Below are positions 5,001 through 6,043 of a stretch of DNA of 26,169 nt, in pieces; the stretch's first letter is position 1, and every line of letters starts with the position of its first letter. The position numbers and the translations under genes are program-made. Origin of the DNA: a virus. The DNA is taken from positions 1-26,169 of the IMG/VR virus record IMGVR_UViG_3300025466_000158; one strand, given 5' to 3'. The notes beneath the pieces are model-generated. The model was not told where the DNA came from. It was given only the letters and a program-made list of their open reading frames with translations, and searched no databases.

Positions 5001-5072
5001 GGGAACAGAGGACGGACGGTAACGAATCGCCTTTTCGATTTGGGTAATTAGTCCAAACCTAGCCATGTTCCC
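5001..5072. repeat. 72-base inverted-repeat element with inner hairpin between regulator and replication gene
   Basis: Perfect 7-base arms GGGAACA (5001-5007) and TGTTCCC (5066-5072) enclose a hairpin AATCG-CCTTTT-CGATT near 5026-5041 and a short direct repeat GACGGACGG. The span has tRNA-like size but no T-arm or proper anticodon arm. It may be a structured 5' leader of the DUF1376 mRNA, an operator, or part of the replication origin. Confidence 0.4.
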
Positions 5073-5078
5073 GTAATC

Positions 5079-5282
5079 TTACTCTAAAAAAATGTCTGGC
5101 CGCAAGTCTTTTCGTAATATTAACCCTTGGGTTGCTTTTTCAATCATAATTGCCAACCTAGGACTAGGCTTTCTGTGGCCGTGAATTACCAATGACATCC
5201 ATGTCGGAGTCACACCTAAAAACACGGCCATCTCATTGATTGAGCCTTTTGGCTCTTCTTTGAAATACTCTTGCAAATTCAT
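5079..5282 (-). CDS. Cro/YdaS-like helix-turn-helix regulator
   Basis: A 67-residue protein, the size of small phage Cro proteins. The helix-turn-helix reads NEMAVFLGVTPTWMSLVIHG (residues 16-35), followed by HRKPSPRLAIMIEKATQG, typical of YdaS/Cro-type regulators in which the protein counts as one short DNA-binding domain. It is the first gene of the minus-strand early operon and is divergent from the plus-strand operon, so it likely binds the 5390-5450 promoter region. Ribosome binding site AAGGAT sits right after a strongly paired leader. No CI-like partner is visible in the window. Confidence 0.75.
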   Translation of the reverse strand: MNLQEYFKEEPKGSINEMAVFLGVTPTWMSLVIHGHRKPSPRLAIMIEKATQGLILRKDLRPDIFLE

Positions 5283-5297
5283 TGTTTTTATCCTTAT

Positions 5298-5384
5298 TTG
5301 TTGGCGCTCCCATCAAGCAGGGTTGGGCTGAGCAACACTCTTACATTTCACGCGACCCACGGAGCTAAACCGTTTCGCCAACAA
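5298..5384 (-). ncRNA. Structured 5' leader (candidate cis-regulatory RNA) of the Cro-like gene
   Basis: On the minus strand the leader opens with UUGUUGGCG (5384-5376) and closes with CGCCAACAA (5306-5298), a perfect 9-bp terminal stem. Inside are ACGG-loop-CCGU (about 5374-5360) and a GAG(U)/(G)CUC hairpin. GCUCC in the first loop can also pair with GGGAGC just before the closing stem, a possible pseudoknot. The predicted transcription start falls at about 5382, so the mRNA would begin with this stem, and the ribosome binding site follows within about 6 bases. No match to a named RNA family is claimed. Confidence 0.55.
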
Positions 5385-5388
5385 CTGA

Positions 5389-5417
5389 ATTGTAATATAA
5401 CAACAAGTTAAATACAA
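5389..5417 (-). promoter_or_regulatory. Promoter of the Cro-like gene and early minus operon
   Basis: Minus strand TTGTAT (5417-5412), 17 bases, TACAAT (5394-5389). The -10 box is good and the -35 box keeps only the TTG. It faces away from the plus-strand promoter at 5421, with the two -35 boxes only a few bases apart, so one bound regulator could affect both. Confidence 0.5.
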
Positions 5418-5486: not shown

Positions 5487-5699
5487 ATGCCAAAGTTCTT
5501 TGTCAGCACTGAAACGGGAATCAAAATAGGATTCGCCCATACACCAAGACCTCAACGTCTCAACCAAGACGAAGAGCGTATCCAAGCAATTCTGCTTAAC
5601 TGCCATCCCCAATTGTCTCTCATCGAAAAGATTACTCGCGTAGTCTATTTGGTCGCGCTCGTGATGATTGCACTTGATCTTTTTTTCTGGAGACCGTAA
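5487..5699 (+). CDS. Small membrane-anchored early protein
   Basis: A 70-residue protein starting at ATG 5487 after TTGGAG. An in-frame ATG at 5439 exists but lies inside the promoter. The N-terminal part is soluble and basic (KFFVSTETGIKIGFAHTPRP, then LNQDEERIQAILL), and the C-terminus carries one membrane helix (residues about 48-68, VVYLVALVMIALDLFFW). It is the first gene of the plus-strand operon. I do not recognise a family. A small tail-anchored early protein could act on host membrane processes, but nothing here shows that. Confidence 0.55.
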   Translation: MPKFFVSTETGIKIGFAHTPRPQRLNQDEERIQAILLNCHPQLSLIEKITRVVYLVALVMIALDLFFWRP

Positions 5700-6043
5700 T
5701 GAACATAGATTTAAGAGATTGGTTTGCAGGACTTGCCATGCAAAGTTTTTTAAATCAATCGCATACAGGAGTAATTGGAAAAGAAGCTTATATGTTGGCA
5801 GACTTGATGTTAGAAGCCAGAATCATTTCAATTCATGAAAAAAACAAAGATACCATACATCTTATGTATCTTGACAAAAGATCAATTAATGTTTTGAAAG
5901 CACATGGAGTCTTTAGGATAAGTGATTTGTTAAACATGACTTTCACTGATTTAATGAAAATACCAAATTGTGGATCTTATACAGCAAAGAAAATTAGGCA
6001 AGAAGTACATAAACTTGGATACAAATTAAAGGGCGAACAATGA
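5699..6043 (+). CDS. Phage protein with RNA polymerase alpha-CTD-like helix-hairpin-helix domain
   Basis: A 114-residue protein. The N-terminus (DLRDWFAGLAMQSFL) resembles a short helix common in small phage proteins. Residues about 57-111 align by eye with the alpha subunit C-terminal domain: LDKRSINVLKAHGV, then ISDLLNMTFTDLMKIPNCGS, then a helix ending KLGYKL. R61 and N64 occupy the places of E. coli alpha R265 and N268, the DNA-contact residues, and N90/G92 match N294/G296; K298 is replaced by tyrosine. It could bind UP-element DNA or transcription factors and so interfere with host polymerase, which is inference. Composition is more AT-rich than the next large gene. The stop overlaps the following ATG. 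Confidence 0.7.
   Translation: MNIDLRDWFAGLAMQSFLNQSHTGVIGKEAYMLADLMLEARIISIHEKNKDTIHLMYLDKRSINVLKAHGVFRISDLLNMTFTDLMKIPNCGSYTAKKIRQEVHKLGYKLKGEQ

What the first reader, a model, noticed from the sequence alone, without database searches (positions are those of the whole stretch)
5298..5384. Structured RNA leader exactly filling the regulator 5' UTR
A 9-bp perfect terminal stem, inner hairpins and a possible GCUCC/GGGAGC pseudoknot occupy the stretch between the predicted transcription start (about 5382) and the ribosome binding site of a Cro-like gene. The position is that of a cis-acting RNA controlling translation of the early operon. Possibilities include a ligand- or temperature-sensing leader, antisense control of the regulator, or a binding site for the regulator itself.
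Basis: partly seen in the sequence, partly recalled or inferred. Interest (0 to 1): 0.7.

Follow-up and report, generated by a model that had tools for sequence, protein, structure and literature searches.

The report
Conserved phage RNA module before Cro
The stretch in front of this freshwater phage's Cro-like regulator gene is a genuine, previously uncatalogued RNA building block that folds into a conserved three-stem shape, occurs alone or in bead-like strings in many phages, and so points to an undescribed family of phage RNAs rather than to a switch dedicated to this one gene.

Summary
The 87-nt element (5298-5384, minus strand) is one copy of a widespread structured RNA domain absent from Rfam. 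I found it in roughly 100 IMG/VR contigs and a few Burkholderiales genomes. Comparative data prove the fold: P1 (9 bp here), hairpin P2 with invariant UUAG loop, and 3-bp hairpin P3 with loop UGCUUUAU (93.5% of cells paired, covariation 0.460 versus 0.115 shuffled, 0/500). A model built without the window finds it at E=4e-5. A -10 box lies 3-7 nt before P1 in 33 of 41 independent copies, so transcripts start at the stem. The ribosome site lies outside it. The domain precedes Cro in about ten distinct contigs at fixed spacing, but elsewhere precedes other genes, stands alone, or sits in strings of alternating beads near tRNA genes. Best reading: an autonomous RNA module, here fused as a stable 5' cap on the cro mRNA, belonging to a new modular phage RNA class that resembles GOLLD/ROOL in setting but not in sequence. 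Its target is unknown; no expression data exist.

The parts
5412..5417 (-). -35 hexamer TTGTAT of the element/cro promoter (17-nt spacer)
   Evidence: 3 of 6 consensus, so weak alone
5397..5411 (.). palindrome TTAACTTGTTGTTAT filling the -35/-10 spacer, candidate operator of the Cro/YdaS-like protein
   Evidence: 9/10 match to TTAAC-N5-GTTAA, 6/500 shuffles; similar palindromes next to the -10 in L021, L153, L057, and by eye L012 and L242; function inferred
5389..5394 (-). -10 hexamer TACAAT; predicted start at about 5382-5386
5376..5384 (-). P1 5' strand UUGUUGGCG
   Evidence: P1 94.9% paired, all 9 pairs show changes on both sides among relatives
5359..5373 (-). hairpin P2 ACGG-UUUAGCU-CCGU; loop core UUAG invariant
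   Evidence: inner four pairs 100% paired, pair 4 has six pair types
5325..5358 (-). variable region, with a possible extra helix GGG (5356-5358)/CCC (5325-5327)
   Evidence: seen by eye in the U-loop class only; not tested formally
5309..5322 (-). hairpin P3 CCC-UGCUUGAU-GGG; loop usually UGCUUUAU
   Evidence: middle pair A-U/C-G/G-C/U-A, all paired
5307..5308 (-). AG linker, nearly invariant, between P3 and P1
5298..5306 (-). P1 3' strand CGCCAACAA
5291..5295 (-). Shine-Dalgarno AAGGA, outside the fold and unpaired
5079..5282 (-). Cro-like DNA-binding protein, 67 aa (Pfam YdaS_toxin PF15943; PHROG 35 transcriptional repressor)

Best explanation
The element is one bead of a new phage RNA family: an autonomously folding, roughly 70-110-nt domain (stem P1 closing hairpins P2 and P3 and a variable arm). 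Transcription starts at the base of P1, so the 5' end is paired. SHOWN: the conserved fold, the conserved start position, modular reuse (alone, with different genes behind it, in alternating bead arrays, inside another bead's stem), and its spread among phages. INFERRED: (1) it acts as an RNA in its own right, not as a switch for cro; (2) in the window it is co-transcribed with cro under a Cro-repressible promoter and stays as a decay-resistant 5' cap or is cut out at P1; (3) the invariant loops, UUAGC of P2 and UGCUUUAU of P3, which can pair through AGC/GCU, form a compact elbow that is bound by an unknown host or phage partner; (4) phages with arrays present several such beads on one RNA, some carrying pieces of tRNA.
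For: Fold. Start at P1. Not tied to cro: downstream products include terminase-type, other and unknown proteins; intrinsic terminators follow L112, L129, L289 and L292, the last two on Burkholderiaceae-group chromosomes. Modularity: beads alternate between the GUUGG frame and the ACGCAUGGGGAUUG...CAGUCCCCAGCCGU frame, with recurrent but different inserts; the domain also sits inside the second frame in L112 and L223. One locus per phage in 23 of 25 records. tRNA genes next to arrays in L064, L243 and L263, and directly abutting in MW202484. SD free.
Against: No transcript, processing or binding data. The loop-loop pairing cannot be tested because both loops hardly vary. In about ten distinct contigs the domain lies 29-35 nt (P3 loop end to start codon) before cro, which also fits cis control. 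Many copies have neither a terminator nor a separate downstream promoter, so they may simply be leaders.
Confidence: 0.6

Rival explanations
1. A cis-acting leader of the regulator: the RNA fold controls translation or stability of cro mRNA in response to a ligand, temperature, a host protein or Cro itself.
For: Fixed spacing of 29-35 nt to the cro start in about ten distinct contigs including the window, L006, L022, L036, L046, L067, L109, L146 and L153; the fold fills the UTR.
Against: SD and AUG lie outside the fold and are unpaired; no alternative fold that hides the SD was seen; the same domain occurs without cro, before other genes and next to terminators; several close Cro relatives (L004, L005, L007-L010, L014-L020) lack the domain.
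Confidence: 0.22
2. A put-like antitermination RNA: the nascent structure binds RNA polymerase and lets it read through downstream terminators of the early operon.
For: It begins at the start of an early leftward transcript, as putL does (for putL); some copies are followed at once by intrinsic terminators (L112, L129, L289, L292).
Against: Fold differs from the two stem-loops of put; one locus per phage, not one per early operon; stand-alone chromosomal copies; no tested link to RNA polymerase.
Confidence: 0.1
3. A DNA-level element (packaging, recombination or cassette site folded as single-stranded DNA) whose hairpins only look like RNA.
For: Alternating inverted repeats with variable cargo resemble cassette arrays, and several copies lie near terminase genes.
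Against: G-U pairs are common among the compensated pairs; a -10 box sits at a fixed distance on one strand; sequence-specific single-stranded loops are conserved.
Confidence: 0.06
4. A chance inverted repeat without function.
For: Thermodynamic z-score alone is modest.
Against: Covariation and model hits.
Confidence: 0.01

Closest known systems
GOLLD and ROOL RNAs (large ornate phage RNAs; PMC12286853)
   Same: Phage-encoded structured RNAs of unknown function, often near tRNA genes; one locus per phage here
   Different: No Rfam match; built from small interchangeable beads, 1 to more than 6, rather than one fixed giant fold; found in Burkholderiales-type phages
HK022 put RNA (PMC9378689)
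   Same: Protein-free RNA fold at the start of an early phage transcript, about 70-90 nt
   Different: Two stem-loops in put; here two hairpins and an arm enclosed by a closing stem; no evidence of polymerase action
tRNA-like structures and tRNA islands
   Same: 7-8-bp closing stem, two arms whose loops could kiss, neighbouring tRNA genes, and tRNA T-arm pieces in some sister beads
   Different: Not recognised as tRNA by ARAGORN or Rfam; P3 has 3 bp and an 8-nt loop; no T-loop consensus in this domain
5' stabilising stem-loops of bacterial mRNAs (such as the ompA leader; from general knowledge)
   Same: Paired 5' end just upstream of a free SD
   Different: Sequence-conserved loops and independent mobility go beyond a simple cap

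Membership tests
GOLLD / ROOL | Match to the Rfam covariance model | tested here: not met
   No gathering-score match in the window or in 20 related loci, most of them with arrays
GOLLD / ROOL | Encoded by phages, often near tRNA islands | tested here: met
   Arrays in L064, L243 and L263 lie next to tRNA genes; not the case for the window
GOLLD / ROOL | RNA-only homo-oligomeric cage | not testable with these tools
   Needs native gels or cryo-EM
put antitermination RNA | Two consecutive stem-loops of about 70 nt | tested here: not met
   Consensus is a closing stem with two inner hairpins (put described)
put antitermination RNA | Suppresses terminators in cis | not testable with these tools
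   Needs in vitro transcription
Any described riboswitch, thermosensor or other Rfam family | Covariance-model match | tested here: not met
   None at gathering score; best E 4 or worse, with unrelated families
SD-sequestering regulatory leader | SD or start codon paired in one state | tested here: not met
   SD unpaired in the minimum-energy and centroid folds of the 165-nt leader
tRNA | Detected by tRNA finders or the Rfam tRNA model | tested here: not met
   Rfam finds no tRNA in the window; ARAGORN finds none at the element in relatives such as L012, L035, L047
New bead family (model R1) | P1, P2 with UUAG loop, P3 with UGCU..AU loop, covarying stems | tested here: met
   Window 5300-5382, 33.2 bits, E 4e-5, with the window not in the seed

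The most novel reading that the evidence does not exclude
Phages of freshwater Burkholderiales carry a modular RNA system: strings of interchangeable structured beads in two alternating stem frames, some derived from tRNA pieces, one locus per phage, in which the UUAGC/UGCUUUAU domain is a recurrent core. The beads act in trans on the host (for example as decoys of tRNA-targeting or RNA-binding defence factors, or as an RNA scaffold), and the window shows the minimal one-bead form fused to the lytic regulator.
Probability: 0.3. Interest if true: 0.9.

Novelty: new variant of a known kind. Interest (0 to 1): 0.72.

Why it matters
Structured phage RNAs such as GOLLD and ROOL have no known job. 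A family made of small, separable beads, the smallest being one 87-nt domain, lets structure and function be tested piece by piece. A stand-alone copy in Curvibacter sp. CHRR-16 and a related bead in the cultured Iodobacter phage PhiPLPE give laboratory entry points. The consensus and model can be added to annotation pipelines, which at present leave these regions blank.

Tried and rejected
Rfam at gathering score and at E<=10: nothing relevant. Similarity of the element or array to cultured phages and plasmids: none for the A/B consensus; a later array query found only short matches, in Iodobacter phage PhiPLPE and MW202484, and neither stretch contains the A domain. Hammerhead-like strings (CUGAUG, GAAA) in the window: not conserved, rejected. 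MAFFT misplaces P1 between length classes, so the stems were counted from anchored segments and on a uniform P1 class. Pfam on chromosomal neighbours was uninformative; a portal protein next to L290 and phage replication genes next to L166 mark prophage or phage sequence. No paper describing the family was found, in an open-access library only.

Full report
WHAT IS THERE. The window is a 26-kb virus record from IMG/VR. On the minus strand a promoter (TTGTAT-17-TACAAT, 5389-5417) is followed within four bases by an 87-nt stretch that ends two bases before a good SD (AAGGA) and 15 bases before the start codon of a 67-aa Cro-like gene (5079-5282; Pfam YdaS_toxin, PHROG 35 repressor). Replication-type genes (DUF1376/primosomal, helicase loader) follow.

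IS IT MORE THAN CHANCE. The folding energy alone is only modest evidence (z -2.2), so I looked for relatives. The Cro protein found 23 viral loci; four of them plus two more distant ones carry the same element before cro. Two short motif scans of IMG/VR gave 31 and 116 stretches, most with the complete element; a few are chance motif matches (for example L025, L034, L072, L075, L095). Anchored counting on 67 distinct copies gives 67/67 paired at the first six pairs of P1, up to six pair types per position, 66/67 at pair 4 of P2 against 38 expected, and 67/67 at the middle pair of P3 (A-U 47, C-G 17, G-C 2, U-A 1) against 39 expected. A covariance model built from 22 copies without the window (98.3% paired, 0/500 shuffles) finds the window at 33.2 bits, E 4e-5, and aligns 84 matches; on that model-fitted alignment 93.5% of cells pair, with covariation 0.460 against 0.115, 0/500 shuffles, and slid structures fall to 31-62% paired.

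THE FOLD. P1 (about 7-16 bp; its sequence can change completely, as in L064, L081, L102 and L289), hairpin P2 NNCGG-NUUAGCN-CCGNN, a variable stretch of about 20-70 nt, hairpin P3 CNC-UGCUUUAU-GNG, AG, P1'. The two nearly invariant loops could kiss through AGC/GCU, but since they hardly vary this cannot be tested by comparison. Among the 67 copies one has GUUAGUG, which would keep the pairing through G-U.

TRANSCRIPT START. In 41 independent upstream regions a TAnnnT hexamer lies 3-7 nt before P1 in 33, against 1-9 in seven control windows and a mean of 5.6 (maximum 14) in 2000 shuffles. Transcription therefore most likely starts at the base of P1 throughout the family, leaving little or no unpaired 5' end; established knowledge of RppH/RNase E suggests that such RNAs are long-lived (inference).

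CONTEXT. In about ten distinct contigs the element sits 29-35 nt (measured from the P3 loop end) before a cro-type gene. Elsewhere it precedes terminase-type, other and unknown genes, a fresh promoter (L026, L102, L151) or an intrinsic terminator (L112, L129, L289, L292). Twenty-three of 25 long phage records searched have it, at a single locus. Among bacteria, 6 of 401 genomes of the Curvibacter family group carry it and none of the other 368 in a class-wide sample; named hits are Curvibacter sp. CHRR-16, Achromobacter dolens LMG 26840 and two metagenome-assembled beta-proteobacterial genomes.

ARRAYS. In many phages the element is one bead of a string. Beads in the frame GUUGGyg...crCCAAC alternate with beads in the frame ACGCAUGGGGAUUG...CAGUCCCCAGCCGU (covarying with AAGUAUGAGGAUUG...CAGUCUUCAUUCUU). 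The second frame holds many different inserts, several recurring in unrelated contigs (for example GCGAUGCRUAGCUGU-GGAC...CUUUAAGUG in L081 and L242 and its variant in L129 and L131), some containing tRNA T-arms (L074, L126, L252, L269). Of 100 loci searched that were found mostly by the second frame alone, about 20 carry the A domain. The 3' strand of a second-frame bead runs straight into the 5' strand of the next GUUGG bead. The A domain occurs in both frames (L112, L223). tRNA genes flank several arrays, and in MW202484 a tRNA-Asn-like sequence runs directly into a bead. The cultured Iodobacter phage PhiPLPE has a 28-base identical bead end in an unannotated stretch of about 0.8 kb that closes with a terminator-like hairpin. 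No array locus scanned reaches an Rfam family except genuine tRNAs and int-alpA RNA behind cro.

HOW IT MOST LIKELY WORKS. The module is used alone, in strings, and with changing neighbours, its SD is free, and only its two loops and the P2/P3 core are sequence-conserved. I therefore read it as an autonomous RNA domain that presents a paired-loop surface to a partner and is made stable by its paired 5' end. In the window it rides on the cro transcript, and a palindrome TTAAC-N5-GTTAT in the promoter spacer suggests that Cro turns both off together. Shown: fold, likely start, modularity, distribution. Inferred: stability, partner, autonomy in the window, Cro operator.

LIMITS. There is no expression evidence. 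Terminator and promoter calls are by consensus. The host is inferred from the genomes that carry copies. The literature search covered open-access papers only.

Noticed in passing
window 5397-5411: Palindrome TTAACTTGTTGTTAT fills the -35/-10 spacer; similar palindromes lie next to the -10 in L021, L153, L057 and, by eye, L012 and L242: candidate operator of the Cro/YdaS-like protein.
   Followed up: partly
L002:3215-3280 and L012:3214-3282: int-alpA RNA (RF02996) lies directly behind the cro gene in relatives; the window has no Rfam match there, though a GGGAACA...UGUUCCC stem is present at about 5005-5072.
   Followed up: partly
L074, L126, L252, L269, L263: Sister beads contain tRNA T-arm pieces or nearly whole tRNA-like sequences inside the bead stems.
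   Followed up: partly
L296:1435-1645 (MW202484): A tRNA-Asn-like sequence runs directly into a structured bead; its final CCA is the start of the bead's stem.
   Followed up: no
L295:1-810 (Iodobacter phage PhiPLPE, EU876853): Unannotated stretch of about 0.8 kb ending in a bead and a terminator-like hairpin; probably a large structured RNA in a cultured phage.
   Followed up: no
window 5699-6043: Protein with an RNA polymerase alpha C-terminal-like domain encoded in the divergent early operon.
   Followed up: no
L292 and L294 (genome G084): The same bacterial genome holds two identical copies of the element core, each followed by a terminator-like hairpin in a different setting, suggesting mobility or duplication.
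   Followed up: no
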